DNA of 64,000 bases from Macrocystis pyrifera (taxonomy: Eukaryota > Sar > Phaeophyceae > Laminariales > Laminariaceae). The stretch covers positions 11,926,087 to 11,990,086 of the forward strand of contig JASSKH010000024.1 of the NCBI GenBank assembly GCA_031763025.1, read 5' to 3'. Both the position numbers and the translations under genes were made by a program. The notes under the pieces are model-generated. The model was not told where the DNA came from. It ran no database searches and worked only from the letters and a program-made list of their open reading frames with translations. Shown piece after piece: positions 4,401 to 49,800 of the stretch (positions are counted from its first letter, which is position 1; every line of letters begins with the position of its first letter).

Positions 4401-7400
4401 GTTTGATCCTAAGCGCTTTCTGGAACCACACGCCGTACACACAAAATTTCGCTTTCTTCCGTACTGTATCCTACCGGTATATGCTTATTTGCACGCGGCT
4501 TATTCATATAATTTCGGCCCTCTCGTAAGAAAACGGACTTTAGCCCTTCTAGAACTGCGATCCCGTTTTGGGGAAGAACCACTCAAACTCCAAGTAGTTT
4601 GTCCCCAAAGCGGACGGCAGTCCTAAAAGGGTTGAATAATCTAGGCAAGAAATACTAAAAAGAAAATACAGAAAGGATGTAGCCTAGCAGGCGCTCGCCA
4701 TCTCTATCAGTCCTAGTTCAATTGAAAGTCCCTTACTACGTGAATATACGCAGGACATTAATTGTAAGGGCCGTTCCTAACGAAATGAAAAACAAATCAC
4801 GATTCGTGACTTTTTGGCATGACATCAGATCACGAGCAATGCCATTTCAGTTCTAACGAAAAAAGCCGAAAAACGTCACGTTTCATGATATTTTCAAATA
4901 AAAAAATCCGATATTTCAAACCCAACGACCTTTGCGGGTGGAGCCAACTCTCGCGAGTGGGGCACGGCCAGGCCGGGCCGGGTCGACCGCGCCTGGCCCG
5001 GCCCGTAATATATTCGAATCACGAGCCGAAGCCTGACCCAGCCTGCGAGATTCGAATCTCACCGACTGTCGGCCAAGCCCGGTCCGCGAAATTTCATCTC
5101 GCAGTCCGTCTGCCCGGCCTGGCCTGTGACATTCTCAGGTCATTTTCGCTTTTGTCTTCGAGCTGTGGCTCCTCCTCCTCAAAATTTGGAGGCTACAACG
5201 TGCTCGTTAGCCCGCGCCCAGCGGTGTCTTTGGGTAGCCGCCCGTTGTCCACAAGCGGCGTACGAAGCAGAGTCTGCCATGCCCCTATACCGGCCTTCGG
5301 ATACCGTTGGTCCGCGTGGGTTGAGTAGTACCTTGATCAGGCGTATTTCGAGACACGACAAATGTCACGAAATGTGATTTTGATTTTTTGTAGGGAAAAT
5401 CTAAAACAAATGGCGTCATGAATCGTGATTTTTTTTTTGCCATGATTCACGACAAAAAATTACGATTCAAGACAAAAATCTCACGAATCATGTTTTTTTT
5501 TGCTCGTTAGGAATGGCCCCAAGAAATCTATACACCCTTCTCGCTCCGCCATAAGGATAAGGATGTTAGCGTATAACATCTGATTTCAGGTTTCTTACGA
5601 GAAAGGTCGATGCTGCAAGACGTGATTATCCAAAGCCTCAACCAACTGTTATGGTACTGTTTTGAACGGTGCAGAAAGGCCGGTAATTACTAGGTAATAG
5701 TTATTTGGATCGTACTTGTACTGCTTGGGAGGCGTATCTTAGACGGAAACCAGTGGTTTCCAGCGAGGTAATTAGCCTCCTCTCAGTCTTTCATCGTGCT
5801 CTAAAAGGAATAAAGCAGATATTCTTCTATCTCTAAGCCGTCAACACACGTGAGTAACAACGAGTACCCGCGCAATAGGCAAACCTGGCAAGGGATACAG
5901 AACTTCCCGACCTGACGTCATTATTTGTGGCGTCGACGGCAGGACGAACCTGCGCGTGAAATTACAAAGGGTTTCGAATCCACACCAACGGATACAAGTC
6001 GACGAGACAGCCAAACACTGCAAGAAAAGTGATACATCTTGCCGCGCGAGTGTTTATGCTGTAGTAGGGACAGCTTACACGCGAATTACTTTACTACTGC
6101 TGACGGCTCACCATGTGCGTGTTGTACCCGGCATACTTGAAACGCTCCGCAAGGGTAACCTCGTCAAGCGGTACCCCCCACGGCATAAAGTTGTCCAGCT
6201 CCTCAAAATGCATCCCCGTGCGGAACGAGTCTCGTCCGGTCATGAGGGACGCCTTTTTTTGTGTCATTCGTGTGTCCAGGGGCAGACGGTGAGGGACAGG
6301 GCGATCATGACAGACGAAGGGTGGACGGATCTGCTGTTGTAATACAGTGTCCGTGCCGGAAAATCCCAACACGGAGACGGCGCCCGCTGCTAGGATATTC
6401 GGTCATGAGACATCGAGACTCGCTTTCGCACGATAAGCGAAGAAAGTAGACCCGAGGAAGCGGTGCTGAGGGTGTGCCATGCTAAATCCCACATGATAGC
6501 CAACACTAGCCTATGCTCAGTGGTGGCAACAAGAAAATAAAATGAGCCTCGACGCCAAGTTGGCGTTTTTTACGCGCTACTGTACGTAGCGGGCGCCTTC
6601 TGCAATACGGGAGGCGAAACTTTAATAGTAGGAAAGTTGAAAAGTGGACAGATGTCTATGGTATCAAGAGTAGGACAGTTAAAAGTGGACAGATATCTAC
6701 AGTTTAGGCCCACGAATAAGATTTAAACAATAAGATTAAACCCTACTAAGAATGAGAACACGAGGCTCGGGTTTTGGGGGAAGCTAAGAAAATTGGATTA
6801 AAAAATCGTGCTCAGAGGCGAACACTACGCTAACTCTCTGCATAATAGCCTAAGCTTAAGGCTGTTCAAGGATAGTGTCACGGGAAGGTTCTAGGGCTTG
6901 CTCACACTACAGTAGGTGCTTCTTGTTGGCGGGCCCATACTTTAATCAAGTAATATACTGTAGTCGTAAAGGTGTGAAAACTAGGCGTAGGTGTGGGCGT
7001 GAAATGCGTGTGACGTCTGACGATCGCGAGGAAGTAGTTTTTAAATTATTACGATAGTAATGAATAATAACTTACAAGCCGAGGTGCAACAGGCAACAGC
7101 ACGCACTGGCTACTCGCTGCGCTATGCTACAGCAGTAGGTAGTATCAGGTGACAGAAGGTAGGTCTGTAATTAAAAAATCTTCGAGACTTTCATCACGAC
7201 CTACCCGCGCAGGCGTGCCGATATGGTTCGTGTAGTATCTCGTTATCCGCACGCCGCCCTTGGCGAGGGAGTCAATGAAAGGCGTAGCCTCGGCCATATC
7301 CGTGCTGCTCGAGTCCATGTCGTTCATCCCCAAGTCGTCGACCAAGATAAATATCACGTTCAGGGCCGTCTCCTTTTGTTCTGCCTCCTCCTCAGCTGCT

Positions 7401-7781
7401 CCACTCTTCTTCTCTCCACCATCACCACCACCACCACCACCACCACCGCTGCTAATCCTTCCATCCCCAGCACCGTCCATCCCGAGGGAGGAGGGGGGGG
7501 TGCTGCTGGCCCGAGCCTCTCCGTGAGGAGCAACGGTGTACTCCTTCTCGCTGAGGCTCGTAGGCGGCTGCTTGGTAGCAGGGTGGAGGTCACTACTAAG
7601 ATGGCCACTGCCACTCCGGGCGTCGCGAACAAAAACAGAAGCGGCTATCGTTACGACCACGGCGACCCCGCCAACTACTAAGCCCGCTAGTCGCGGGAAA
7701 AGGGGGGTTTCGGTCGCTCGTGGCGGCGGCGGCGGCGGCGGCGGTGGTGGCCACGACTTGGACTTCCTCCCGCCACAGTCG
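1480..7781 (-). CDS. S1-family sulfatase-like protein, partial, catalytic residues missing
   Basis: Minus-strand exons 7205-7781 (5' edge tentative), 6112-6252, 3160-3272, 1996-2077 (acceptor inferred) and 1480-1599 join in frame across GT-AG introns. The first exon has a Pro run from the GGC/GGT repeat, then a hydrophobic stretch (LAGLVVGGVAVVVTIAASVF) typical of a type II signal anchor. A low-complexity linker follows, then the sulfatase start (NVIFILVDDLGMND) with its metal-binding Asp pair. The next parts match arylsulfatase B-like order: TGRDSFRTG, PWGVPLDEVTLAERFKYAGY, a GKW(H)LG-type block, GFDTFLGYL, and DRAIEIANEH..PLFMYLAFQ. The C-x-P-x-R position reads G-T-P-A-R (GGC for the Cys) and GKWHLG reads GKWNLG (AAC), so both the formylglycine precursor and the His are lost. 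The protein is probably secretory and inactive as a hydrolase, or a decaying gene. The C-terminal half is not in the window. No ATG was fixed; an upstream exon is likely. Confidence 0.85.
2690..2790. repeat. Dispersed GATC-rich repeat (copy 1)
   Basis: This stretch aligns by eye with 9170-9290: shared blocks are AGATCATCC, TGCAGGATC(T/C)GTA, ACAGA(C/T)C(C)AA(A/C)C and C(C/T)AGGAA. Part of the family is also present inverted at about 4300-4370 (GTTTCCTGGGTTGGATCTG). A MITE lies directly next to this copy. Confidence 0.6.
2792..2902. mobile_element. MITE, ~110 bp, TATTACGGGGG family
   Basis: Terminal inverted repeats of about 28 bp are visible: the left end carries GCGGGGGACC...TAAATAGGACC and the right end is its inverse (GGTCCTATTTACTAT...CCCCCGTAATA). 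TA flanks both ends, consistent with a TA target duplication. It lies in a sulfatase intron. Related copies are at 17591-17698 and 63962-64000. Confidence 0.8.
3372..3416 (+). repeat. G-rich dispersed repeat with ATGCATGGCCGTAGTCGTAT core
   Basis: A G-run is followed by GTACTCATTATC and the 20-bp core, then GACCATA. The same block recurs at about 7985-8045 and 8085-8137 on this strand and, more diverged, on the minus strand at about 21359-21402. Confidence 0.75.
3868..3881. repeat. Short telomere-like CCCTAA motif
   Basis: Two tandem CCCTAA-type units lie in an intron of the sulfatase gene. This is too short to be called an interstitial telomere. Confidence 0.4.
4768..5520. mobile_element. 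Non-autonomous TIR/foldback element, ~750 bp
   Basis: The left end reads GGGCCGTTCCTAACGA and the right end, inverted, GGGGCCATTCCTAACGA. Each is followed by an A-rich zone with repeated TCACGATTCGTGA-type palindromes. The middle (about 4970-5130) is GC-rich with self-complementary GGCCAGGCCGGGCCGG / CGCCTGGCCCGGCCC. No transposase-like ORF is present; the long open frames inside are low-complexity shadows. It sits in a sulfatase intron. Confidence 0.7.
6735..6960. repeat. Dispersed repeat shared with 60.2-60.4 kb
   Basis: The end of this stretch, GTGCTTCTTGTTGGCGGGCC followed by CATACT, recurs at 60381-60407 with GTGTTTCTT. The upstream AGCTAAGA(A)AATTGG(A/G)TT and ATAGCCTA(A/T)GCT..AAGG blocks also recur in the same order. 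It lies in the first visible sulfatase intron. Confidence 0.65.
7421..7447. repeat. (CCA)n / (GTG)n microsatellite in coding exon
   Basis: About nine CCA units lie inside the first visible sulfatase exon and encode a Gly run in the linker between membrane anchor and catalytic domain. A GGC/GGT run at 7721-7750 encodes the Pro run before the anchor. Confidence 0.85.
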
Positions 7782-7983
7782 CTTCGACGTAAGTGCGCCC
7801 TTCTCGCGATTCCGGCAGCAACGGCGTCGACTCATCGTGATGCCTCATCGTACCAATCGTGGTATCGTGTTATGTTAGGATACAATAATAAGTTTTTTGT
7901 TACCGCTTCCTAGGGTGAAAGAACCAGCAGCCTCGGCGAGCAGTGAGTCACCTGTTCCTGTTGTTATCGCGGGACTTTTCATG

Positions 7984-17200: not shown

Positions 17201-20200
17201 GGACTTTATCATGTGCAGGGGCCAGCGACCTATCGTGGAGGGGGCCAGGGACAAACTGTCCATGTTTTGTCAGGTACGCATAATTCCAGGACTTTTTTCT
17301 GGTTTTCTCGGCTTGTTTGCCGGTGCCTTCCGCCCGTTTATTGGCAACGTCGTCCTTCCATCAGTGTCCATCAATGCGTAGTTCTGACCAGGAGAATGGT
17401 AGAACGTGTACGTCCCCGTTCCTGATTCTCTGGTTCGATCGAGTGCTGCTGTTGCATTTAAATAAGCCGTTTGCCCCTGTTGGTCTGGCATGTGCAGGTG
17501 CCCCCGGAGAGAGTGGTGTCCGTCCATGACGTGTCCAACGTTTACCACGTCCCTCTGCTGCTACTGGAGCAAAGTGAGTTTTCCGTGAGCTATTACGGGG
17601 GACCATAGTAAATTGGACCAAATATTGTTAGTAAAAATAGGTAAATATATAGGTTTTTGTGTATAGCGTAGGTCCTATTAACTATGGACCCCCGTAATGG
17701 TGCAAAAATCATTCCCTTGTTGTACTGTGATAAGTCAGTACAAAACAACTTTGGCGTGGAAGCACGACGCGTCTATTTAGTAGTACTGACCGCCTCTTTG
17801 TGCAGCAAGAGGTACATATGCAAGATTGTCACCGTTGCGAATACAGCTTGCCCTAACCTTGTAGCTCTTCGCAAAAATGGCATCGCGCTTTGTTTTGTGT
17901 ACCCGAGGCAATAACAGCAAAATGATAATCAACTTAGCAACACACACCCCTGGTCAACCCCCGCGCCTAGCACACGCGGAATACTTTCTGTTTTACTTGT
18001 TTTTTCACCCGAAGCCTCAACCGTACAATGGTGCACTTAGGGTTGCCTGCTCGCTCCTCTGCCCAAAGCGTCAACCATACTATATTGCCAACCAGCTACA
18101 TATTCAACGTTTGTTTTCCTTGCCCAGCCTCATGAAGGCAAACTTTTGTTTACGTCCTTTGCGCCACTTGTTGAGCTTCGCCTTTTTCTTCTTTGCATCT
18201 GCGATTACATCGTTTAGATTTCGCTGCCCTGCTAGCGCAGCGGCTGAGGATGGGACCTAGACACTCTCCTGAAGAGGCCGCCGAGGCAACCCCCGTCCGC
18301 CTTCACAAGGCGAGCTTGGAGCGATGGGAGGACCTGGCCAATACGCACGACGACGGTACGTACCATGTTCCAGCACGAAAACTATGTTTATTTCTGATAC
18401 TACTGTAGTATTTGTCAGCGAGCGCTCAGGTACCTTGCATGTCTACAAAATGGGCACCATTTCTATTGCGCGCTAAACGTCCTGGTATTTTAGATTGTCA
18501 CCCGCTTTTGCGTACCGGCTTTACTTGCCTATTATTTCAGTAGCAGTATTTGTTTATTCCATTCACTGGTTTCTAAGATGTCTTGGCTGAGAGGCGTATT
18601 CGTGTCCGCCAGTGTCGGGTTCCAATGGCGGCGTGTCTTTTTCCTCGTCCACAGCCCCGGGTAAGCCAAGAAATACACAGGTGTATCCCACCGACCTGCT
18701 TCTCGTGCTGCAAAGGAACCGTGCCCCTCACATCTGACGTAGCGATCAACACCTCAATACCGTTACCGGCTAACTACAGTTTCGGACGAAGCGGTGATCG
18801 GGTTAGTGGGCAAGTTCACGGAGTTGCACGACACGTACCTGAGCGTGGTGAAGGCCTTGCTGCACGCCTCTTTGCAGTGCAAGGGACGGCTCACCGTCAA
18901 GTGGATCGACAGCTCCGCCCTGGACGCGACGAAGCAGCATAAGGTACACAATACAATATTCCGTTGTTTTTCTCAGGTTGGCCAAGTCAAACTATAGCCC
19001 AATTTGTAGCTGTGTACACCATCGTCAAGACTGGTGTTGACGTACCGGGTGAGCTCTAATTGGCAACCTGCGCAGAGGTTACGTCGGTACTTTCCCGCTG
19101 TTTTCGGAAATTTTTGACAAAGGCGTGAAAAGTAGGCGAGTGAAGGTATGCCCGGACTCTCCCGCACCCAGGCAGTGATGAATCTCCGCTGGCGGATGCC
19201 AAGTTGGAGACATAGTGTGTGTGTGTGTGTGTGTTCTTCACATTAAACCGTTCTTCTACTCGTCGACATCCAGCAAGCCCAGTGTCCGTGCTGATTCTTC
19301 ACCCTAGAAAGAAACGAGCTCCGTGGTCACAGACTACGACACAGAGATAATACACCGTGATGCATTAATAGCCTACGTAATACCATGCCTTCGCGCTAGG
19401 TGCGGCCGACACAACATACATACATACGCCAGCAACCAAAATACACCATAAAGAAAGAGAAGCAACCAAGAAACCAAACCGAAAAAGCACAAGAAAAAGA
19501 AAAAGAAAAGGGGAAGAATCCCAAATAAATAAATAAAATGGGAAGCCAAAGCTCAGACACATACATACTTACCCCGAGCATGAGCCAAAAGAGACGTGCA
19601 AGGGGAAAGACACGAGAAGGAAAAAGGGGACTATGCATCCCGGTGAACACTTAACTAAGTAAAAAGAGCAATAGTGAGTGGGCCAAAATACGCTCGTCAC
19701 CCACCCACTATGTAGTACTTCTTTCATAAGGATAAGAAGGGAAGAAATCAAAATGCATACCGAACGGCCGCAGCAGTTGGCGGTACGAGTAGCAAAGAAA
19801 AGTCCAACCTATTAGTCGGCCTGGTACCTTGCTACCCTATCTGCGGTCTCTCTGCTACTCTCTTCTACCGCGGTTTCCCTTCTACTCCTCCTGTTCCCCC
19901 CCCTGCCCCGATACACTTGTACGGTGTTCCCTCTACCCCTCCTGCTGTTACCCCTCCCCCCATTCCCTCTAACACTACCTGCAGCGGATGCACGGCGCTG
20001 TCTACTCAGCTTTGCCTCAGCCTCGTGCCACCTGCCCATGAACTGTTCAGCTGCTTCGAGGATTCCCCGGTACCACTTTCCCGTCTGTTTTGCTGCAGTG
20101 GGCCACAGTGCGGCCCCAACTCCAAAGACTAAGGGGGAGTCTTCCGTTGATCCCTCGGTGGCTTTGAACACTCTAAGGTCCTCAGCAATTGCCCTAGGCT

Positions 20201-23200
20201 AAGTCTTGGGCTGCCCGCCTGGTTTCGGGCTCCCCCCACCAGCGATCGTCCCGAACATCAACCGACTGGGCAATCGCCCCTCGTGTTGCCGCACCACAGC
20301 CCCCGCAAAGAAGAGTCGCCGTTTACGGATGGTCGTTTCGATACTTTCGCATCGTGTTATCCTGAGCGCCTTCGCATACGAGAGGGTGGTGTGGTCGGTG
20401 CGTAGTCGGCGCTGGAAACCAATGACTCGCAGAAGGACTTCGTGGTGGGCTGATCGAAGCTTGGCGAAGTGGTCCGCATTGAGGGTCCACGTCACGCAAC
20501 CATACAGCAAGGTCTCAATCACCTCGGCCTTCAGCATCCGGACTTTCAGATTAAGCGGTGCGTTCGTCCTATCGTACAGTTCCGGACCATACCGTTAGAG
20601 GCATGCCCGCATCAGACGGATTCGTCGCTCGATTTCGAAGGAGAGGTCAGCGTTCTCGTGGATAATGCCTCCTAGGTACAAAAACTGGGTCGTCTGTTTA
20701 TGCGTTTGGCCTGCAGCTTCGATCGCGAGCGGTGAGGTGGTAAACATAGGGAAAATGGTGTATGTTTCACGTAAGTATAGGAGTTGGTATCGTGTGGGAT
20801 GCATGCCCAAGTACAGGGTAGATGCCCTAAAACACTTACCAGCACCAGGTATTATTTGTCACAACCATGCCTCGCCAAGATGCCTCTCCATCTGCGATGT
20901 AATTCCAACAATAATCGGTGGTCAGGTGAATAACTAACCCTACGTTTATGGAATGTTCTTAGAAGGGCAAAAGCCAAAAACGGGTATACCTGTTCCATTC
21001 GAGTCAAAAACGGATACGTACTGAAACCAAGTCTAAAACACACGCCACAGGCGGTGTTTTTGGCCATCATCAATCACAACGTACGTGATTGTGTGTGTTT
21101 TGCGCCTCAACAGGGACCGTGCGACCTCCAAAATATTAATGATTTCTGTGTTATGATGTTTTCGCGATCGCATTGATTCGTGCGGTATAGTAGCCTCATC
21201 GTCAGCATACGAACAAAACTAATATCGGGCGTAATTTGAGGCTGACCTGCTCGCTATCCATACCATTTCAGCAAGCATGAGCAGTATATAAACGGGAAGA
21301 CACCTCGTGGGCCAGAGCAAGAGTACTTCTTTTTTGGCGTCCTCCTCCCGTTGCCCAGCATCTATGGTCAAACAACCACGGTCATGCATGATATCGAGTA
21401 CATCCCCCGCGTTGCCGAACTTTGGAGCCTCGCTCGTCCTCGAAAAACCGTATGCACACAGGGGCATGAAGTTTGTTTACCGCACTAAAAACTGAGCCCA
21501 CCTCGACGCGGGGTGGCGCAGACGAACTGCCATCTGTGTGCATCGTGCTGCATACCTTGTAGGAGATGCTCGTCTGTCAATGTGGTTGGTTGTGGTGTGA
21601 TGCTTTTTTTGTGTAAGGGGTGTAGGGGGTCGTCGTGGTGTGATGAGTGTGGTGATGTGTTGGTGTAAGAGGTATAGGGGGAACGGTGCGTGGTCTCTGA
21701 TTGGCTCCAAATTAGGCAAACCCAGCTGAAAGCTAGGCAAAATAGACAAATCAAGGTGTACCTGACCCATTTCAAGCCGAAAGCTGGTACGGTGTGAGGC
21801 CGGCCAATCGCAGGGATCCTGTCGTGTGATCGTTTCTTGTTTTTTTGTGTCTACCTGCTGTTGGTCCAACAATGGACCATATATACTTCCATATATACTT
21901 GTTTTTGGCTGAAACCCTTCTTAAAAAGGTCGCTCTCGGCGCAGGCTAGGTCATGGTTTCGAACGCACAACGTGTGTGCACACAGCGATCTATCCATGCA
22001 CTGAAGGCACCTAAACGTTGAAGCGCTTCCAAATCTGATGTGTAGCGCAGCCTAGCGTTGACATCTTTGCATGATTGTACTCGTACTCGAAATTGCGTTG
22101 GAGTTATCCTTGTTGTTGCCGTGCTTTACGGTCGTTAGGGTTAGGGTTTAGGGTTGGGGTTAGGCCGAATACATAGCCCGTACGACTCACGTTCCCGGTT
22201 CTTTGAGATCATTTTTTTCCGGCATGTTTCGCACGACATGTTGCGCCATTGACGTTGCAACAATGCGAAGATTCAGCAGTATTATCTCGATTTGGGGCCA
22301 ATCGCAGCAGGAAAGCTTTCAGACCCAGAATATTTATGGAAATACGCTGCTAGGAGTATTTGCCTTGTTCAAACGTAAAACGCGCGAAAAATGCGAATAG
22401 AGCTGACTAGCCCGATTTTGGGCCTGCCAGCTGTTTCCTGCAGAGGACGAACATGCCAACGCCGTTCGTAAATGAACGCAAACACGATGTGATCGTTGAT
22501 GTGTTCGTTGGGTTGGGGGTATGCTGTTGTCAGTTTGCCTCAGCCTATTTGGTTTGGCTGCCGTACTTGAAAACTATGACAGCTATTGATCCCAAAGTTT
22601 CGTTTTGGCGTACGTGCTGTCTCGTTCTTTCGTTCCGTGCCAAACAGGACCTTTCAAAGCACAAGAAGGCGTGGGAAGAGCTTCGAGCTTGCCACGGAAT
22701 TCTAGTGCCCGGCGGCTTCGGATCCAGAGGCTTGGAGGGAAAAATTCAGGCCATCAAATACGCAAGGTTCGGCTCCTTACGTCGACTTCTTGAAACATGC
22801 CCGTCACTGGAGATATAAGCTTTTGGACCGTTTGAGGGTCGTTGTTATGGTGCTCATTGCTGCTAGTTGCTATTGGGGACTCTAATGTCGGAAGATGCGC
22901 CTATTAATATTAATAGTGGACTCGACAAACATTTGTAGGTAACTGTTTCGCGAGACACGCCTAAGGACAATGCGCTCAACCTTTGTGATACACGGCACAT
23001 GATAGGCTAGCGCCCGCCCCCCCCCCCCCCCTTCCTCGAAAACAACACGCGTGCTTCCTTGCAGGCAGAAACGACATTTCTGTGTTCGCTGATGACGCTG
23101 GTGGGGTAGTGCCGGGTTAACGCGAGCAGCACCTCGGGGCCAATGCGGCGCGCAGCTTTCTTGCCCGCCTTTCGTTCTTTGTCGTCGCTTGCATCGGCCG

Positions 23201-35325: not shown

Positions 35326-35989
35326 ACACGTTTGGTTTATTCCGTTGACGGCGTTGCAGCGTACCACTATGAGGGTCCGTGCCAAGCGCTAATACAGGAT
35401 ACACCCGCGGCGAGACGTCTACGCAGCCAGCAGCTCCAGCTCCTCCATGGACAATAGCACGCGTGCCACCGTCAAGAGATCACTGGCGTGAGCGGCAAGA
35501 GGCAAGTGGTTCTTTCGTTGGTTGATGTTGCCTCTTCGGGCGAACGTTTTGGCCGCCTGACCTTGTCCGATGACCGCTCCAGGTCCGTGTCGTCTAATTT
35601 TAGTCTCTCCAGAAATCCTTCGCCCGTGGCATCACGCCTGACAGGCCTAGGACCGCCTCACTCACTACTTTGATGGATGTTTTCTCAGGACAGGTGTCGC
35701 GTGCTCTCGAGGCGGAGATACCGGACCGGAGGTATTCGTGCTCCTCCTGAGGTCGCTGAGCACCCATTTCGACCGCGCCCACATGGTTTAACAAGTGTCC
35801 GACGGGCAGCCCTTTTGCGGTTTTAGTCGGGAATTTTGCGGGGTAGTTTCGGCAGCGACGGGAACTGAGCGTGTTTTGTTTCCGGGGGTAATGGGTGTTT
35901 GGAGATGGTTCAGATGGCAGCTAATGAGCAATACCCCAGCGTGATGCCCACGGTGTACCCAGGGGTTTAGTCTACCGCACCGAGGCCGT

Positions 35990-37690
35990 TCGGCGCTTTG
36001 GATGCCATGTGGTGGGCTTTTCAGACTCTGGCGAAAAATATGACCCATGCCGTCAACGGCGAACAACATTTTCTGATCCTGCTTGTTCGATGGGTAGGCA
36101 ATCATCCGCCCCGTCGGGACCCGGGTCTACCAGTATTCGTCGCGACCAGGACCAGATGCCTTCCAAGTCGCCTTTGTGTCAGACGGTATCGCGCAATAAT
36201 CCGCTTGTAACGAACGTCAACGAATCCATCCCGGACTGCCTCGACCCGTGGCTTGACACGTCTTCCAACTGCCGGCCCCTAGACGAGCACCACTATACCG
36301 AAGTTCACGCTGTTTGCATGTTCATCCAGACCGACGACCCTAATCCTCTGGTGTGGCTTACTCTCATCAACAAAATCACGCCGCCGCACTTAGCGATAGC
36401 CCAGGCGACTGTCGAAACTGCCATGAAGACACAAGTTCATTCAAGCAGTGTGTAGACACCACTTTCTGAACGCGAGCAGTATATTGAGCCCTGACCTTGG
36501 AGCACTCGGTGACGACGGTACGACGTACAGACGTTGGCAAGCACCCATGGTCCGACACCGCCGCGAGGACGACCCCTCGAGATCGAACAGACAGCACAAC
36601 CATAAACAACAAAAACGCCGCTCCGGCTACTCGCGTGGGTAGCATCAAGGCCAACGTCAGCAGAACGAACAAAGCGACGGCTATAACATACACGCGGAAG
36701 CACCTTATCAGTAGTCCGGGTCTGGCCACGACAGTGGTGTCCCATCAGCTTCTGTCTCTTCCGCTACTGCCCCCGCCTTACGATCCGTTACGGAGCCTGT
36801 CATACTCCTGACGAAAAACCTGAACGGACGCCAGCCAGGCACCCTGCACACCAGAAACTGATACGCCGACGGCGCTACGGTTCCTCGCGCGCGTTCGCCG
36901 TCGGCAGAAACGTTCGATTTCATGAGTTGCTTGTATTACAGGCTCGTCCAGCGCTCAGAGCCGGTCTGTCTCGTCCACTGCCTCACTATCTGGCCTTGAG
37001 CCCAGCACATGGTCCCGAGTATCCAGTCGACGCACCGATACAGCCACACTTGCTTCAGCGGAGCACCCACCGGCGCCTCGGTGGGCGTCGGAAATTGACC
37101 CTCGGCCGCCGCTCCCCTCAGCCTCGGTACGAGAGCCTGCGTTTCGAACGCCGCTTTCCCCAGCCGAAGGCCACGTAGCACCAGCATTGTTGCGCCTGCG
37201 CGTCGTTCTTTTCAGCGAGAGTAGCCCCCTCCCCCCTTCAACTCCCGGCCATACGGTGGCGGTCGGTTTGCGGTGCGGGAAAATCTGACAACCCGAGATA
37301 TCGGTTGAAGCGCGACTCGGCGTTTTCTCGTAATAGCCGAGGCTGCGCTGCCATTTTCCCTGTCAAGAAGGAGTCAACAAGATTAGCTACCTCGTCCCCT
37401 TTCCCCCGCAGATGTACAGGAAGGGAGCCGTCTCCGGTGGGCACTTTATTGCTACCCACCCGAGCCCCGTTTTTGAAGGCGTCTGCTGGATCTGCAGGCC
37501 CTCTTTTGTCCACAGACACGACACCCCACACGTGCATAGCGCTCCCTTGGCTCCAGTGGAGCAGGAAAAACTGACGCAGCCCGACGAGCCAGTGGTGACT
37601 CCACAATCTTCAGCTAGGGCAACCGACAGCAGACCTGTTAAAATTGTAAGAATCGCAGCTCTAGTCAAGTAGAAGGGGGTCAAAGCCCCC
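35990..37690 (+). pseudogene. Upstream part of the decayed retroelement (unassigned ORF)
   Basis: Plus-strand open frames at 36009-36455, 36497-36811, 36927-37178 and 37412-37672 look like pieces of one reading unit broken by frameshifts. They include a Trp/Leu-rich segment (VWLTLINKITPPHLAIAQAT) and a C-x2-C pair (VCWICRP). They sit on the same strand and directly upstream of the pol-like region, where gag would be expected, but I see no clear gag motif. The minus strand at 37387-37683 begins like a signal peptide and is probably a shadow. Confidence 0.4.
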
Positions 37691-37786
37691 TGCCCCCCCT
37701 TATTAGAAACAACGGCCCTCAGGCGCAGTAGGATAACCTTCTGCTCATCTCTTGCCTACGGACGATGTGACACCGGGCCAGTACAC

Positions 37787-38400
37787 GTGGGATTGGACTC
37801 ATCTCGTGAACCAGGGGCCCAGTGGTTCAGAGGAGTACACGTCTGCCTTCCCACCGCAAATGTGGCCACCGACGGTTCGGCACCGTTGGTCTTTGAGCCT
37901 ACTCTGGAGTATTCACGGAGCGAGTGCTACTGTTCTGGCAGCCCCCCTCCTGGTTATTGCTGTGACCCTCCTTGCCATTTGTCGTTGACGGGATGTCCTA
38001 TTCCTGCGCGGAACTGGATGCGATGGCTGAAACGGCTCGTCTTTTCCAGGATCACGGCGTAGCACAAACGCATCGGGCAAGGCGTGTGTAACTTCGACTG
38101 CGATAAATGGGACCGCGTTCGGGAAGACGCCCTCTTTGCTGGTACGTTTTCCAACTTCACACAGAACCCGACCATGAAGCAGCACCTGCTGAGCACTGAC
38201 ACCAAACGTAAAGATGAAGCCAGCCCTTTTGACCCCGTGTTGGGCATCGGGCTCCGGGCGGACGACTCCGAGGCTCAAGACCCTTGTTGGTGACGGGGAG
38301 ATTTTGCGGGAAAGGTTTTCCCGCCATTTGCGAACCGTTCGCGCAAGTGAGGCCGGGTTGGCACACCCCGCCTCATTAATTCCGGACTCTAATCACGCCC
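37787..38400 (+). pseudogene. NADAR (YbiA-like) domain, frameshifted, in the retroelement
   Basis: Three consecutive frames each hold part of a NADAR domain in the right order. About 37889-37955 reads FEPTLEYSRSECYCSGSPPP. About 37986-38090 reads GMSYSCAELDAMAETARLFQ then DHGVAQTH. About 38084-38292 reads CNFDCDKWDRVREDALFAGT, FSNFTQNPTMKQHLLSTDTK, then EASPFDPVLGIGLRADD. NADAR proteins related to YbiA act on ADP-ribose-type or riboflavin-intermediate N-glycosidic bonds. The Y-x-S-A-E / M-A-x-x-A-R-L-F block, the F-x-Q-N-P and the EASP-x-D-x-x-WGIGL-type block are family hallmarks (Trp replaced by Leu here). It lies between the unassigned upstream ORF and the protease/RT region of the same strand. 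Two frameshifts make it non-functional in this copy. Confidence 0.75.
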
Positions 38401-38439
38401 GACAGAAGTCTTGAGATCTCCCCCGCGCCACCTCGCCCT

Positions 38440-41400
38440 TTGGCAACGACTCGCGCTTGCCCAGATCCTACTCCGGAGTTTTTGACCAGTTTTTCTGACG
38501 TGCTTGCTGACCATAGCCCCGAGGATTCGGCTGATGAATTTGGTATCGACCCTTACTTTGCGCTGTCACAACACGGCCCTTGCCTCGTTGGGGGCATCAC
38601 AACGCCTCTTTTAGAACCAAAACTCGCGACTAAGAGGGAAGCTGGCATTCTCGCACTTGTTGGTTGCGCTGCACTCCTCGACACTGACCCCCCCAGACTT
38701 TCATTAAGAGAGATGTAAATCGCATGCTCTTGGTTGGTGCGGCACCGATCGCGCGCGGGCAAAATGCGCACCCCGGTTAGGGGGGGGCTTAGGCGAATCG
38801 GACCCTTTACAAACTTCGATGAGCCTACGCCTGAGCGTCAAATTATTTCGAGACGACGAGCCCACAAGCCCCCTCGCATCAGGGGTCGCTGTGGTCCCCC
38901 CCTCAGTGATGCAACATGCAGCGCTGTTGGGTCGTGACAGCTGGATGCATTTTAATAGCCGCTCCTACCGCTCTTTGCTACCTCGGCCGTCGGACCAACG
39001 TGCCTTTGGCGAGCTGGAGTTAGTTTAACATGCCCCGGGAGGCGTGTCGGCTTACGGTGTCGACTCCTCCGCTTGGGATGGAGATTTTCATCTACGCTAA
39101 GAGGGTGCTGTTGGCGTCACCCTGTCCGACGATCCGCAACCGCTTGCAGTCAACTTGGTTCGAAGCAATGGCTGCCGGGCACTCCAGTGGGCACTACTTT
39201 GGTCGACATGATGCCCTAGTCCGACCTTCCCTCAGCTGAGGAACGCTTCGTCGCCTTCAGACAACAAGTTCTTAGCCTCGTTGGAGTTGCGGATATCAAG
39301 CCTGCCGACATCCTTGGAGTCACCCACGCCCCACTCATAAACGTTCCGTTGCACGCTTGACAGCACAATCACCGAGTCCCTAACCCTTCCCTCGGACTAC
39401 CTGAGGTGTCGCCGGTCTCTGCCGATATGGTATCACCTCTCGCAGCTCCAGCCTCGCCCTCGCCTGCCCTTTTTGAGCGTTTCCTCTCAGAACTACTCCC
39501 TTCGTTTGTGCGGGTCTGGATGCGTCTGCCGTTACATCTGCGAGCGGTGGCGTTTGGCCTTCACGGCGTGGACCGGGACCCGGAAGCTGGGGGGTGTTTT
39601 GGGCAATGTTCGTGACGTTTTATCAAAGTCCAAGACGGTTTGTGGTTCCTGTTCGTTGACACGTTTCGTGATCTCGGTCGCGCAAGGAAGCGCGCTTGTC
39701 ACACCCTGGCCGCACCGCATCAATCGCATGATGGTCAAAGACGTTGACGCCACCTTGAACCCCGTACCTCGTAGCAGGCCTGATCCAGCACTCGACTTGC
39801 CCGTATTCGAGCCCTCTGGTGGTCATTTAGAAGAACTCTGAAGGCGTTTAGACACCATAAACTATAAGAAACTTGACCAGATGAGCAGCCTCAGCCAGTT
39901 GCTTGTCCTCCATGTGGATCAGGTCCTTGACTCGTTGGGGAAGGGACGGGAACTTTATCTTTTTTATTCGATTTTCTCGTTCTGCCAGATTACCGTGCAC
40001 AAATACACCGTTCCTCTCACCACGTTTTGCACTCCAACGGGCCTCTACGAGTGGCTTGTCATGGTCAGGGCAGCAGTGCTTCACCCGGCTGGTTCGTCAA
40101 GGTGATTAGCGCGGCTAGCAAGGGCCTGGAACAGGTGGCTGTCTACCTGGACGATGTGATATTTATTTGACTCTGATCCGACGGCCCACGTCAAGACGAT
40201 ACGAGTCTTTTCCGAGCGGCTGAGCGAGCACAACCTCAAGCGCCCCCCCTTGAAGACTCGCCTGGGCGCCAGTCAGTTTGTTTTGGTCACTCCTTGTTGC
40301 CCACGGGTGTACGACGAAACGCGAGAGACACAACTTTGATGAAAATGCCCATGCCCCAGAATCTTGAGCAGGTCCTCGCGCGGATGAGTAGAGTGGGGTA
40401 CTATAGCAAATTCCTCAAGCGGATACGTCGTATCACCGCCCTTCTCAAGAAGGGGGTGAAGTATGATTTTCGGCGGCTATATAGGTCACCGTGCTCGAAG
40501 TTGTCGCCGAACTCGACACTCCACCCATTTTGATCTTCCCCGACTGGGATGCCGTAGCCGACGGATCCCGCCCCTTCCATGTGTACCGCGACGCCTGTAT
40601 CGTCGGTCTTGGTGCCGTGCTCGAACATGAACTGCCGGACGGCTGGGTTCGGCCCTGTGCACACATCAACTGCGCTACCCTCGATTCTGAGAGGCACTGA
40701 CTTGAAAGCTGGCACCATTGTCTAGGTCATCAAACGACTCCGAGGAGGCTATGTGGCACGAAGTTTCGGGTATTTTCGGACTTTAAAGCGCTCGAAAGCC
40801 TCGGTAAAGTAGGGGATTTCAATGCGTGCGTCCAGCGGTGGCTTGAGTCTCGAGTTCCGAAAGGGCAGCGCCAACAGAAATACTAGTTTTATGTCCCGTT
40901 TGCCAGAGCCCGCACCAGAACACGACCGCAATGGGTCTAGCAGACACACCCCCGTCGAAGACGGCGGTATATTATTTATTCGAGCCCGCGGGTTCCGCGT
41001 TCGCGCTTCACCAACTCCCGATGTCGGCTTGGATGGGCTGGTGCCCCGCCCCGGCAGTGCTGTTTTTGGTGGCCTGCTTTTCACCTCTTCGGATGTGAGT
41101 CATTTTCGCACACACGGGCCACGTACGAGGATCGGCGAGATTTCTGTTCCTTCGGGCCCGTGTATCTGCGTCCGTCGCCACCGTTGATCGCCGTTCTGGC
41201 CGTGGGGGTATCTCGCCCATCGCCAACACCGCTGTCGTTTCGGTTGTTGTCGTACCCTCAGGGGGCGGCAAGGTCTCTGCAGGAACCCCCATTGCTGCGT
41301 CAGCCGTTGCTCAGCACGCATCTCCCCAGACAAGCACTTGATAACGATAACGAGTAGATTTCGCCGTGATCACTGATCCTGCCGCGTCTCCCCCCCTTCG

Positions 41401-42690
41401 CCACCTGGCAATCCGGCACCTCTAACTGTCTTAGCGCCGGCGGGCCGTATCTCCATCCGGACGTGTCGAAGAACAGCCGCTGCCACTGGAGCGCCGCCTG
41501 CTGTTTATTATGGCTTCGGGTCAGGCCCGGCCTTTAGATCATCCGCCTGGCGTTCTATCACCTCGCCGCGAGTCCTACGGTCACGATCGTCCCCGACCGT
41601 CGCTATGGACCTTGCTCCTGCCGCTTCGGCTGTCCCGACGGCACCTATTCCGTCCCATCGCGATCTTGTCGAGCCTGTGGGGACTCTTCGTTTACCGCTT
41701 CCACCGTTGACTGACGTACTGGCCGTCACAACGACCGACTAGAATGGCCTTGGGCGCAGCTGCCGAATATTACTTCGGTGATTACGCAGCGTGTTATTCG
41801 CACGCCGACTGGGTTCTGGAGCAACAGGCCTAGCCCGCGTGCAACGCAGCCATGCGCCACATAGCTCTTGGCCGGCCGGCAGTTTTTCCTGCCGACGTTT
41901 TGTCGTGTTTTCCTTCTCGTCAACGCTCTTCCTTCTTGGAGGTTCAGGAGCTTGCTGGAAAAGGACGACTGCACACCACCGACGAGGGCATCGTCCTGCT
42001 CGTCCAGCAGCCGTGTCCACCCCTTGGACCAGGCACGCAACGCCCGGTGGGTCGAACGGCCTCTTTATTGAGCGACGAGCACATTCGCATTAATGTGCCG
42101 CTGTTATGCGTCCCTGGGTCATGAAGGCTCACATTCTACAGCTTTCTGCCACCTGGAGACCACGCGCAATCCTGCGTATGCTCCAAGCTTTGTATCGGTG
42201 GGTAGGTATGAGCACCTGCACCCGGTGGTGGCCAAGCAATAGCTTGAAGTGTCAAGCACGGAAAATCTCGCGGCAGACCGTCCGATGGTCCATCATCACG
42301 ATGCTCGCGCCAGAAGGGCCCGGCATTGCCGCCAGCTTTGATTTATTTGGCCATGTTCCGGTCACGCCTCGAGGTAACACGTACATCTTATGCTCCAAGC
42401 TTTGTATCGGTGGGTAGGTATGAGCACCTGCACCCGGTGGTGGCCAAGCAATAGCTTGAAGTGTCAAGAACGGCAAATCTCGCGGCAGACGGTCCGGTGG
42501 ATCATCATCACGATGCTCGCGCCAGAAGGGCCCGGCATTGCCGCCAGCTATGATTTATTTGGCCATGTTCCGGTCACGCCTCGAGGTAACACGTACATCT
42601 TTCTCTCCACTGATTGTTTCAGTCGCCAAATCGACATGTTCGCAGTTACAGCGGGATTAGGGCCAGTAGGGAGGTCACTTTGAAGGCCTG
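38440..42690 (+). mobile_element. Ty3/gypsy retrotransposon pol remnant
   Basis: Plus-strand pieces run in Ty3/gypsy order. A protease-region remnant is at 38819-39028 (GVAVVPPSVMQHAALLGRDS, no intact Asp-Thr/Ser-Gly seen). The RT N-terminus is at 39600-39841 (PHRINRMMVKDVDATLN). The RT body is at 39848-40500, with ITVHKYTVPLTTFCTPTGLY and the YLDD catalytic box at 40144-40155. The RT/RNase H junction is at 40491-40700 (ADGSRPFHVYRDACIVGLGA). RNase H to linker follows at 40745-41700. The integrase N-terminus and start of the core are at 42060-42690 (ALYRWVGMSTCTRWWPSNSL, GHVPVTPRGNTYI). Many frameshifts and stops make it dead. The integrase catalytic core and 3' end are missing, and no LTR pair was found. 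The element would have copied itself through an RNA intermediate. Confidence 0.85.
42178..42601 (+). repeat. 212-bp tandem duplication in the integrase remnant
   Basis: 42178-42389 is repeated at 42390-42601 with a handful of differences. The unit begins ATGCTCCAAGCTTTGTATCG and ends ...GGTAACACGTACATCT. It duplicates the zinc-finger half of the integrase, so it arose after or during the element's decay. Confidence 0.95.
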
Positions 42691-46810: not shown

Positions 46811-49800
46811 CTAAGTTGCGGTTTTCGACATGGTGAAGTAGTCGATATTGAAGGATTTGGACTCAACGCATAGCCAAATTTTGATGCCTGTACCCTTTTT
46901 GAGGCCACCAGAACCGTTGCCGTTCCTGTTACGGTAAGCAATGTGCAACGAATACAGTGGGAGCGAACAGTGCAGGAAACGTGGTGGGACTTGGTTAAGT
47001 TGACGCAGGGTTCGACCGAGTCCATCGGAGGCCTAATTGGTCCCTTGAAGAGGCATATATACTGGATTTTTGCGTCCGCATTCGAAAGCCTTCGGGGATA
47101 TTTTCCATTTTAGTTCGCCATCAGTATGTGAGTGATGTGCCCCGGGAACGGACGCACTTCTAACGATATGTATGCGATGTATTTCCCGGGAGGACAGGTA
47201 TGGTGCAAACGTAACCAGGGGGCACAGGCCTTAATCAGCATCTGGTCAATCGATCCCTCGCAACGACATAGTGCATCGTATAATTTCGGCGCCGTCGCAC
47301 CGAGCGCATCTGTGGCGGACGTACTCGCGTTACGTAGTACGGAAACATGTGAGAGTATGCACGGATAAACCAGAGCTTCAGCGACGACAGGTCGTGATCA
47401 GAACTTGACGAAGTTACCACCGTCATCACCAGTACATGGCGAACGGCTGGATCACTCCGCGAAATACCGGAACAATTGCAGACGATGAAATGATCGGGTA
47501 TTGATACTCATAACGTCGACGACTCACACGGCCAAGTCTTGGTAGCGGAGGTTTCCTCCAGTAGCCGGCACCTCAACGTTGCCGCTCAGATCGGTCGTGA
47601 AGTCGTCGCAATCAGTGCCACCGGTGACGATACGGAACGAGCCAGTGCTGGTGCTGGCGGCCACCCTGAAGGTGAAGTAGACGTCACTCACTGCGATAGG
47701 GGGTGGGATGGAGGATTTCCAGGTGAAGACTATTGTCGGTCCCGGCTGGATTCCTGGTAGCATCTGTAATCGAGCTCGTCGGACTCACAAACCCCGCTCA
47801 GAGCAGACAACCAGTTGGATCGTAAAGCGCGAACGTTTGGCATCCATGGTGATGATGATGTGCCGAAGCGCTCGTTGGGCACGTCGGTATATATTCCATA
47901 GTATACAAGCGAAAACTAGAGTGGTTTCGAGGTTCGACCACGTCATCTGTCACCTGGTGTTCATGCGATGATAATCAGCGCAAACTGCTTTAAAAGGAAA
48001 CGCTCGTAAGCTACAATACATGTCTCTCTCACTTGAATTGGTCACGTCGATGGTGTATCGCAGGTATTCGCCAGCAGTGATGTAGCCGACGTAGTAGCCG
48101 CCATCGTCCATAACGTTGATGTCCACGTCTTCATGCGGCCGGAACGCCTGTCATTGGGTATCATAACGAGTCAGGCATCGGGGAAGCAATCTTCGGAATG
48201 ACTTCGCGTTTGCTCCTCCAAGATGGGTTATAGGCTTGGTCATCGACTCGACTGTCTTCAAGCTATGGATATATTGGGAGGGGTGCTTCGCTCCTACACA
48301 GAAAGACAACTAAAAGCAACGCGCTTCTTAGCATGAGTGATTCACCAGAAACGTGGAGAGCAACGGGCTGGACGCTTAGTGGTTCACGCATTTCCTTGCG
48401 GGGAGCTGAACCAAATATGGTATACGTGCTCAACACCTGATTGCGTCGTTTTGTTTCCGGTTAGACGGTTAGGGCTAGAAGTCAGTCAGGAAGCAGCCAG
48501 GAGGCAGCCAGGAGGCAGACAGCAGGCATACAGATAGTGTTAGGGACTGTAGACGCATATCACAACACCTAGCACCTGCACGTTTGTACAAACAACTACC
48601 CGCTTCCACGTACCCCCTTATTGTTTCCCTGAGAGGAATCTGAGTATGCCACGCCTTCTCCGCCCTCGTCAAATTCTTCCGCTTGAATGGTGCCAGGAAC
48701 AGTTGCGGCGACACCTTCCCAGGGGCCTCCATCCTCGAGCGGTTCAGAAGGAGATGGGGTCCGTACTGTGGGCGGGGTGCTTGTTTTCGACATAGTGAAG
48801 TAGTCGATGTTGAAGGATTTGGACTCGATGCACAACCAGATGATCGCGTCGCTAGCCTTTTTAATGCCGCCGTTGCCGTTGCCGTTCCTATGACGGCAGT
48901 CAGTATGCAGCGTCGAAATTGAGAACGAAGAGCGCAGAAATTGGGGTCGTATGCGATTAGGCCAGAACGGGGTTCGGCCGCGAGCGGTGGAGGCGAACCA
49001 GACCCCTTGGAGGGGCGCAGTTGCTGCGTTTTGCGGAATGTTTCCACTTTCGTCGAGGACTAAATCCTCACATACCCTGGAACAGGACGCATCTTCCAAC
49101 CCGGTGCCTACGCTGTGCTCGCGAAGTAAGCATCAGTGGCAAACCGATCAAGCAGCGCATGCCTAAATCGACATCTGATGGATGGCGCCCTCGCGAATAC
49201 AACTTCGAAGATGTCGCACAACGTCATGTCGACACCGTCAATTGAACCACATTAATGCGGGTCTCATCAACCATACTTCGCGAGCAATGCAGGCAGCTCC
49301 CACGGTTGCAACAGACCTCAAAGGACCGCATATCATGTTCAGCACCGGACTATATCATCACCGGACATCGCAAACGTCTATAACTAGAACACCTCGCGAG
49401 ATTACCGCAACGATGGCGGGCGATTACACGGCCGGTTACGGCTTGCAGCAAGGACTCACACTGCCACGTCTTGGTAGATATTGTTGCCTCCCGTGTTCGG
49501 CACCTCAACAAGGCCACTGAGGTCTGTGGTATAGTCGTCGCAATCACTTCCACCGGTGACGACGTGGAGCGAGCCAAGGTCGCCGGCAGACGCCACTCTG
49601 AAGGTGAAGTAAACATCATCCACTGCGAAAGGCGGGATCGAGAGTATATTGATGAGCACTGTGGTCGTTCCCCGTTAGACGCCTGATCGTATCCGAAATC
49701 GAACTCATGCTGTACATACACCCCCCAAGAATATCACGTAACGCGTTGAACAGCCTATGACACATGATTGGTAGAGACAGTGGGATACCTACATACCGCA

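What the first reader, a model, noticed from the sequence alone, without database searches (positions are those of the whole stretch)
37787..42690. NADAR (YbiA-like) domain carried by a Ty3/gypsy element
A frameshifted but clearly ordered NADAR domain lies on the same strand just upstream of the protease/RT/integrase remnants. A nucleotide-glycosidase-type domain in a retroelement would be an unusual accessory function, perhaps acting against an ADP-ribose-based host defence or on nucleotide modification. I recall similar brown-algal retroelement proteins but cannot verify whether the link is described.
Basis: partly seen in the sequence, partly recalled or inferred. Interest (0 to 1): 0.75.

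Follow-up and report, generated by a model that had tools for sequence, protein, structure and literature searches.

The report
NADAR enzyme inside Ty3/gypsy retroelements
The window holds a dead relic of a large retrotransposon family that carries, inside its LTRs, a bacterial-type enzyme domain expected to strip ADP-ribose from nucleic acids; such a family was described in the brown alga Ectocarpus in 2025, and here it is abundant and includes a young lineage that lost its reverse transcriptase but kept the enzyme.

Summary
The window carries a broken NADAR domain at 37915-38375, in three frames (tblastn E 2e-43), inside one co-linear relic (35396-42654) with protease, RT, RNase H and integrase pieces, about 74% identical in DNA to better-kept relatives. 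Flanks were added to ten relatives; seven show an LTR pair with NADAR between the LTRs and 4-bp target duplications. One insertion has its empty site in this window. Order: NADAR - protease motif - RT - RNase H - integrase. In the window's genome, 150 of 150 scored NADAR places are over cut-off. Eight ADP-ribose-site residues are invariant in 15 of 15 aligned copies, and the model matches ADP-ribose-bound Phytophthora NADAR. Retro-NADARs form one clade (99/94) among bacterial and phage YbiA proteins. The window copy is dead. The link is in print for Ectocarpus (PMC12477816), so this is a new member of a known kind. An RT/RNase H-deleted sublineage (124 junctions), with identical LTR stretches in two copies, keeps NADAR; the passages I read do not mention it. 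De-ADP-ribosylation of the element's own nucleic acid is the likeliest role, inferred and not shown.

The parts
35396..42654 (+). Relic of a NADAR-bearing Ty3/gypsy element (subfamily A), truncated at both ends, no LTRs
   Evidence: co-linear DNA homology, 74-78% by piece to L018 and similar to L017, L020, L021, L026; start of detectable protein homology 35396
35396..36341 (+). Remnant of the ORFs upstream of NADAR (gag position; no Pfam match)
   Evidence: tblastn with L018 ORFs 347-1411 and 1347-2057, best E 6e-41; no Pfam family for these two ORFs
37915..38067 (+). NADAR piece 1, frame +1, with one in-frame stop; K50 position is T
   Evidence: tblastn
38063..38299 (+). NADAR piece 2, frame +2, one stop near its end; R79 position Q, W133 position L; E125 and D130 kept
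   Evidence: tblastn
38298..38375 (+). NADAR piece 3, frame +3
   Evidence: tblastn
38572..38977 (+). Aspartic-protease region in three frames; active-site DTG reads DTD
   Evidence: tblastn E 2e-33; LLDTGSPQ motif in L009 and L010; window letters
39854..40311 (+). Reverse transcriptase remnant, two frames
   Evidence: tblastn E 6e-43
40467..40847 (+). RNase H remnant
   Evidence: tblastn E 3e-45
41939..42653 (+). Integrase remnant (H2C2 and core), homology ends at 42653, contains a duplication
   Evidence: tblastn E 8e-37
42177..42600 (+). Tandem duplication, 2 x 212 bp at 97%, inside the integrase remnant
   Evidence: the repeat finder
19228..20596 (-). Copy of another repeat that is the empty site for the insertion of relative L013 (target ACGG present once here, on both sides of L013)

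Best explanation
The locus is an old, dead copy of a Ty3/gypsy retrotransposon family that acquired, probably once, a YbiA-type NADAR domain related to bacterial and phage proteins and kept it just upstream of protease in Pol. In intact copies the NADAR domain is most likely an active ADP-ribosyl-guanine hydrolase that travels with the other Pol enzymes and cleans ADP-ribose (or related N-glycosidic adducts) off the element's RNA or single-stranded cDNA during replication, whether put there by host enzymes or by damage. Shown: domain, fusion, position between LTRs, conservation of the active site, abundance, recent copies; single origin supported in the sampled set. Inferred: catalysis, substrate, benefit to the element.
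For: Within the element: LTR pairs flank NADAR in L012, L013, L017, L018, L026, L027 and L028, with 4-bp duplications; empty site for L013. Fusion: NADAR + RVT_1 + RT_RNaseH in one ORF in L009 and L010. Spacing: 40 of 62 A-like NADAR hits have an A-type RT 1929-2468 bp downstream on the same strand (89 of 150 RT rows given). RT plus RNase H matches the Ty3 Gag-Pol chain 7q5b, E 2.6e-57. Active site: the positions of E43, K50, R79, W89, R93, E125, D130 and W133 are invariant in 15 of 15 rows, 14 distinct places (residues from PMC11543638 section 12); E43, K50, W89, E125, D130 and W133 in 61 of 61 with viral and bacterial relatives. Model pLDDT 96.1 matches 8bau, NADAR with ADP-ribose, E 9.8e-12, TM 0.81. 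One clade 99/94 among 78 rows. Between subfamilies NADAR dN/dS is 0.14-0.21 in five of ten pairs, four being not computable and D-E 0.67.
Against: No activity was measured. NADAR changes faster than RT (45-60% versus 77-85% identity between groups other than D-E). Synonymous change is near saturation in those pairs (4 of 10 not computable), and D versus E gives 0.67 on 19 differences. Within subfamilies 51 of 81 singleton changes are nonsynonymous, only slightly under the neutral values computed (0.72-0.78; p 0.048 at 0.72). No DarT match in the genome and one exon-sized PARP match, so no guanine-modifying host enzyme is in evidence. Y84 and D86 of the Phytophthora site are not kept.
Confidence: 0.6

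Rival explanations
1. NADAR is a counter-defence effector: it removes or degrades ADP-ribose marks or small ADP-ribose signals that the host uses against retroelements or viruses, acting on host targets rather than on the element's nucleic acid.
For: NADAR domains sit in polyproteins of positive-strand RNA viruses with the polymerase and are proposed to counter host ADP-ribosylation (passages of PMC9503650). The active site is conserved. The genome has at least one PARP-like match.
Against: No host ADP-ribose defence is known to me for this genome; no DarT match. Fusion to Pol would place the enzyme mainly with the element's own nucleic acid (inference).
Confidence: 0.25
2. NADAR is a structural or RNA/DNA-binding module without needed catalysis, or a passenger retained by hitch-hiking.
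For: Faster change than RT and near-neutral variation within subfamilies. The RT-deleted lineage shows that a Pol enzyme can be lost and the copies still spread.
Against: The eight key residues are unchanged between A and B, which are 48% identical, and the domain is present in all five sampled groups and in the RT-less lineage.
Confidence: 0.12
3. The NADAR piece in the window is a separate host gene fragment next to an unrelated insertion.
For: The window copy has no LTRs, so the window alone could not exclude it.
Against: Continuous DNA alignment through NADAR and pol to elements with NADAR between the LTRs.
Confidence: 0.01

Closest known systems
NADAR-bearing Gypsy lineage of Ectocarpus (e.g. 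Gypsy-12_Ec32), PMC12477816, Genome Biol 2025 (passages)
   Same: Ty3/gypsy Pol with a YbiA-family NADAR domain in its N-terminal part; relatives of NADAR mostly bacterial; chromodomain reported at the integrase end.
   Different: The chromodomain match here is below cut-off (E 0.003) and lies in a separate ORF of L018. Direct sequence comparison with Gypsy-12_Ec32 was not possible.
Phytophthora nicotianae NADAR (PDB 8bau)
   Same: Same fold and ADP-ribose site; the eight key residues kept.
   Different: 34% identity in the structural alignment; reported as not DarT-linked, no retroelement context in the passages and sections read; Y84 is F and D86 is not kept in the retro copies.
Phage and bacterial stand-alone YbiA/NADAR proteins (e.g. 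Pseudomonas phage ZQG1, 54% identity)
   Same: Same domain, nearest relatives in sequence among those searched.
   Different: Small stand-alone proteins in the phage records looked at, not fused to a polymerase.
NADAR in ORF1 of Tx1 LINEs of oyster (PMC12477816, passage)
   Same: NADAR in a retrotransposon.
   Different: Non-LTR element, divergent NADAR; reported there, not examined here.

Membership tests
Ty3/gypsy LTR retrotransposon (Metaviridae) | Pol order protease - RT - RNase H - integrase | tested here: met
   Pfam RVT_1, RT_RNaseH, Integrase_H2C2, rve in that order (rve over its cut-off only for the L018 integrase piece); protease by the LLDTGS motif only, Pfam below cut-off
Ty3/gypsy LTR retrotransposon (Metaviridae) | LTRs TG...CA with short target duplication, in relatives | tested here: met
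   7 of 10 relatives given extra flanks show an LTR pair, all 7 with 4-bp duplications (L026 after shifting one base); L009, L022 and L024 showed only a 3' LTR
Ty3/gypsy LTR retrotransposon (Metaviridae) | LTRs around the window copy itself | tested here: not met
   no LTR-like direct repeat pair in 29-50 kb, no LTR match near it: truncated relic
Ty3/gypsy LTR retrotransposon (Metaviridae) | RT closest to Ty3 | tested here: met
   best solved relatives 4ol8 (listed as reverse transcriptase/ribonuclease H; Ty3 by recall) and 7q5b (Ty3-G Gag-Pol), E about 1e-57
NADAR (YbiA) family | Pfam NADAR profile over curated cut-off | tested here: met
   150 of 150 scored places; 163.5 and 176.6 bits in ORFs of L009 and L018
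NADAR (YbiA) family | YbiA fold and catalytic E/K/E site | tested here: met
   in intact relatives; lost in part in the window copy
NADAR (YbiA) family | Guanine-ADP-ribose hydrolysis | not testable with these tools
   needs enzyme assay
[quoted passage not shown]
Ectocarpus NADAR-Gypsy lineage | Chromodomain fused to integrase | tested here: inconclusive
   PF00385 E 0.003, 17.9 bits against cut-off 25.1, in a separate ORF of L018
Ectocarpus NADAR-Gypsy lineage | Common ancestry with Gypsy-12_Ec32 | not tested

The most novel reading that the evidence does not exclude
The NADAR domain is a retroelement-borne nucleic-acid de-ADP-ribosylase valuable enough that a non-autonomous lineage threw away its reverse transcriptase and RNase H, borrowed them from relatives, yet kept NADAR (and integrase) and now seems to outnumber its RT-bearing parent. 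It would point to an ADP-ribose-based control of retroelement nucleic acids in this host.
Probability: 0.25. Interest if true: 0.75.

Novelty: new member of a known kind. Interest (0 to 1): 0.45.

Why it matters
It shows in a second genome (537 Mb with contigs up to 26.5 Mb, so not the Ectocarpus reference, whose chromosomes are given as 4.5-11 Mb) that a Ty3/gypsy lineage carries a bacterial-type ADP-ribose-processing enzyme with an intact active site. It gives many natural copies on which to ask whether eukaryotic retroelement nucleic acids are ADP-ribosylated. The RT-deleted lineage that keeps NADAR offers a natural contrast for asking what NADAR is for.

Tried and rejected
Rejected: NADAR as a neighbouring host gene (refuted by elements with LTR pairs). 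Rejected: the RT deletion as a retro-copied splice; its end lacks AG and the two ends share a short G-rich overlap. Disfavoured: separate acquisitions for A and B; the first tree left it open, the second gave 86/82, the largest 99/94 (whose bootstrap had not settled). E. coli YbiA (2b3w) was left out of the last two trees for its long branch. Led nowhere: first structure model from 15 retro rows of only two subfamilies, pLDDT 44.9; DarT search of the genome, none; PARP search, one exon-sized match; LTR pair of L009: only a 3' LTR match was found; Pfam on five ORFs upstream of NADAR in L013 and L018, no family over its cut-off. Not done: identification of the host species; comparison with the Ectocarpus element sequences; transcript evidence; a literature search aimed at RT-less gypsy lineages.
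Full report
WHAT WAS CLAIMED AND WHAT IS THERE. Using the NADAR domain of relative L009 as query, tblastn finds three consecutive pieces in the window at 37915-38067, 38063-38299 and 38298-38375, in frames +1, +2 and +3, joint E 2e-43. The first two each contain a stop. With the same approach the protease region lies at 38572-38977, RT at 39854-40311, RNase H at 40467-40847 and integrase at 41939-42653, all on the plus strand; the ORFs upstream of NADAR leave traces at 35396-36341.

ONE ELEMENT, NOT TWO NEIGHBOURS. Window DNA 35605-41393 aligns as one gapped stretch to L018 1191-7105 at 74%, followed by 41268-42389 (77%) and 42389-42654 (78%), and similarly to L017, L020, L021 and L026. In the relatives this stretch holds NADAR and pol together. 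The end of the relic contains a 212-bp tandem duplication. No LTR pair was found around the relic, and the outer parts of L018 (about 3.6 kb at 5', 2.4 kb at 3', LTRs included) have no DNA match next to it. The relic is therefore truncated. It is also dead: the K50, R79 and W133 positions of the ADP-ribose site are T, Q and L, and the protease DTG is DTD (letters; numbering of PMC11543638).

RELATIVES. NADAR (PF08719) was sought in the window's own genome (537 Mb, 223 contigs): 1264 first-look candidates, 150 scored, 150 of 150 over the curated cut-off. I fetched twenty stretches of 10 kb around hits chosen mostly for long open frames, so this sample is biased to good copies. Single ORFs contain NADAR, RVT_1 and RT_RNaseH (L009, 1696 aa; L010, 1231 aa). 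A protease-type LLDTGSPQ motif lies between NADAR and RT in both; Pfam protease matches stay below cut-off. Integrase follows. RT plus RNase H is closest among solved structures to 4ol8 and to the Ty3 Gag-Pol chain 7q5b.

LTRs AND TARGET SITES. Extra flanks were fetched for ten relatives, on both sides for L009, L012, L013, L017, L018, L022, L026 and L028 and downstream only for L024 and L027. Seven show an LTR pair with NADAR inside (L012, L013, L017, L018, L026, L027, L028); L009, L022 and L024 showed only a 3' LTR. LTRs are about 0.28 kb in subfamily A and 0.5 kb in B. All seven have 4-bp duplications at their ends (ACGG, GCAG, ACAG, AGGG, TAGA, TTGA, and ATGG for L026 after shifting the BLAST boundary by one base). 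The seven are 12.9-13.9 kb long, except L027 at 8.9 kb. LTR pairs are 93.7-96.8% identical in the three A elements and 97.2-98.9% by piece in L012 and L028; they are identical over 499 bp in L027 and over the 428 bp compared as one piece in L013. The window itself holds the empty site of L013: the repeat at 19228-20596 (reverse strand) has ACGG once where L013 has it on both sides.

HOW GENERAL IS THE LINK? I split the 150 NADAR rows roughly by where they start on the profile: 62 A-like, 88 B-like; at least two of the A-like are in fact B. Of the 62 A-like, 40 have an A-type RT on the same strand 1929-2468 bp downstream (89 of the 150 RT rows were given to the script). Two of the 22 misses (L015, L021) do hold a broken RT, and one has a B-type RT. 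Of the 88 B-like, 19 have a B-type RT 1907-2132 bp downstream (43 of the 150 RT rows given). A search with Phytophthora NADAR letters ranked further copies first (150 scored); three were fetched (C, D, E = L066-L068) and all three have RT about 2 kb after NADAR. D and E are close (92% in NADAR, 96% in RT). A stand-alone host NADAR gene among the unfetched hits is not excluded.

A LINEAGE WITHOUT REVERSE TRANSCRIPTASE. Nine of the eleven fetched B copies lack RT and RNase H through what looks like the same deletion of about 1175 bp; L010 and L011 keep RT. Junction letters agree in the six copies inspected but for single-base changes, so one event is likely. The junction pattern (25 bases, up to 2 mismatches) occurs 124 times in the genome and its reversed control 0 times. 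53 of the 88 B-like NADARs have it 1802-1916 bp downstream (100 of the 124 places are listed by the tool). By contrast 41 of the 150 scored rows have B-type RT at 92% identity or more; broken RTs can be missed, so the ratio is rough. L013 and L027, with identical LTR stretches, belong to the deleted lineage, so it has moved recently, presumably with RT supplied in trans (inference). It keeps an open NADAR with all eight key residues (L012, L013, L014, L022, L023, L024). The passages of PMC12477816 that I read do not mention such a lineage. The searches 'NADAR'+'Gypsy', 'YbiA'+'transposable element' and 'NADAR domain'+'brown algae' brought no other relevant paper, nor did the 20 listed of 104 for 'NADAR'+'retrotransposon'; none was aimed at RT-less lineages.

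IS THE ENZYME SITE INTACT? In the ADP-ribose complex of Phytophthora NADAR the ligand is held by E43, K50, R79, W89, R93, E125, D130 and W133 among others, and mutation showed that the E/K/acidic residues matter in the E. coli C7 enzyme (PMC11543638, sections 11 and 12). The eight positions are invariant in 15 of 15 aligned retro rows (14 distinct places, L001 and L018 being one), although A and B are only 48% identical. In a 61-row alignment (4 retro, 54 of the 77 viral-contig loci, 3 bacterial) E43, K50, W89, E125, D130 and W133 are invariant. Y84 is F, and D86 is not kept. A model from the 61-row alignment has mean pLDDT 96.1, and its two matches at E 0.001 or better among solved structures are 8bau (9.8e-12) and E. 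coli YbiA 2b3w (8.2e-08).

SELECTION. Between groups other than D-E, NADAR is 45-60% identical and RT 77-85%. NADAR dN/dS is 0.14-0.21 in five pairs and not computable in four, and RT is 0.04-0.12 in ten pairs; dS is large, so these are rough. D-E gives 0.67 for NADAR (19 differences) and 0.12 for RT (21). Within subfamilies (13 A and 11 B copies; two partial A copies and two duplicates dropped) 51 of 81 singleton changes are nonsynonymous, a little under the neutral fractions computed (0.72-0.78; p 0.048 at 0.72 and 0.15 at 0.69, a lower value I also tried). So the domain was constrained over the long run, less than RT, and inserted copies drift, as expected.

ORIGIN. The nearest named relative found is a phage YbiA-like protein (Pseudomonas phage ZQG1, 54%). 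In a tree of 78 NADARs (7 retro; 71 bacterial, phage, plasmid, viral-contig and Phytophthora rows) the retro copies are one side of a branch with 99/94, nested among bacterial and viral-contig sequences; the bootstrap had not settled. A smaller tree gave 86/82, and the first left it unresolved. This favours one acquisition from a bacterial or phage source, in line with the horizontal transfer suggested in PMC12477816.

MECHANISM. NADARs of several kinds remove ADP-ribose from guanine in DNA (PMC11543638, PMC11125620; passages and sections), and positive-strand RNA viruses carry NADAR in polyproteins with their polymerase (PMC9503650 passages). The best explanation is that the element's NADAR travels with Pol and cleans ADP-ribose off its RNA or cDNA; counter-defence against host marks or signals is the main rival. 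Neither is shown. The genome has no DarT match and one PARP exon-sized match (E 3e-6).

VERDICT. The window copy is a dead relic. The extra finding is the abundant RT-deleted lineage that keeps NADAR.

Noticed in passing
window 5674-5899, + strand: Lone match (74%) to the subfamily A LTR, about 30 kb from the relic: probably a solo LTR of another copy.
   Followed up: partly
window 7145-7828 and 6094-6399, - strand: Two exon-like pieces of a sulfatase gene; Pfam Sulfatase 25.6 and 18.3 bits, the second below cut-off.
   Followed up: partly
window 22411-22815, + strand: Piece resembling a class-I glutamine amidotransferase, slightly below cut-off (20.3 of 22.8 bits), possibly an exon.
   Followed up: no
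window 47521-47703 and 49453-49635: Repeats spaced 1932 bp; the ORF list shows near-identical ORFs at 48.6-49.7 and 50.6-51.7 kb, suggesting a tandem repeat of about 1.95 kb.
   Followed up: no
L018 8681-9964 and L013 8509-9720: Long ORF after integrase; in L018 a weak chromodomain match (E 0.003) and in L013 no Pfam match.
   Followed up: partly
L018 347-2057 and L013 789-2610: ORFs between the 5' LTR and NADAR, in gag position, with no Pfam match over its cut-off in the five scanned.
   Followed up: no
L018 -2528 onward and L027 1958 onward (oriented coordinates): Both subfamilies have TGGCGTC(T/G)TCGGC just after the 5' LTR, which looks like a shared primer-binding site; the tRNA was not identified.
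   Followed up: no
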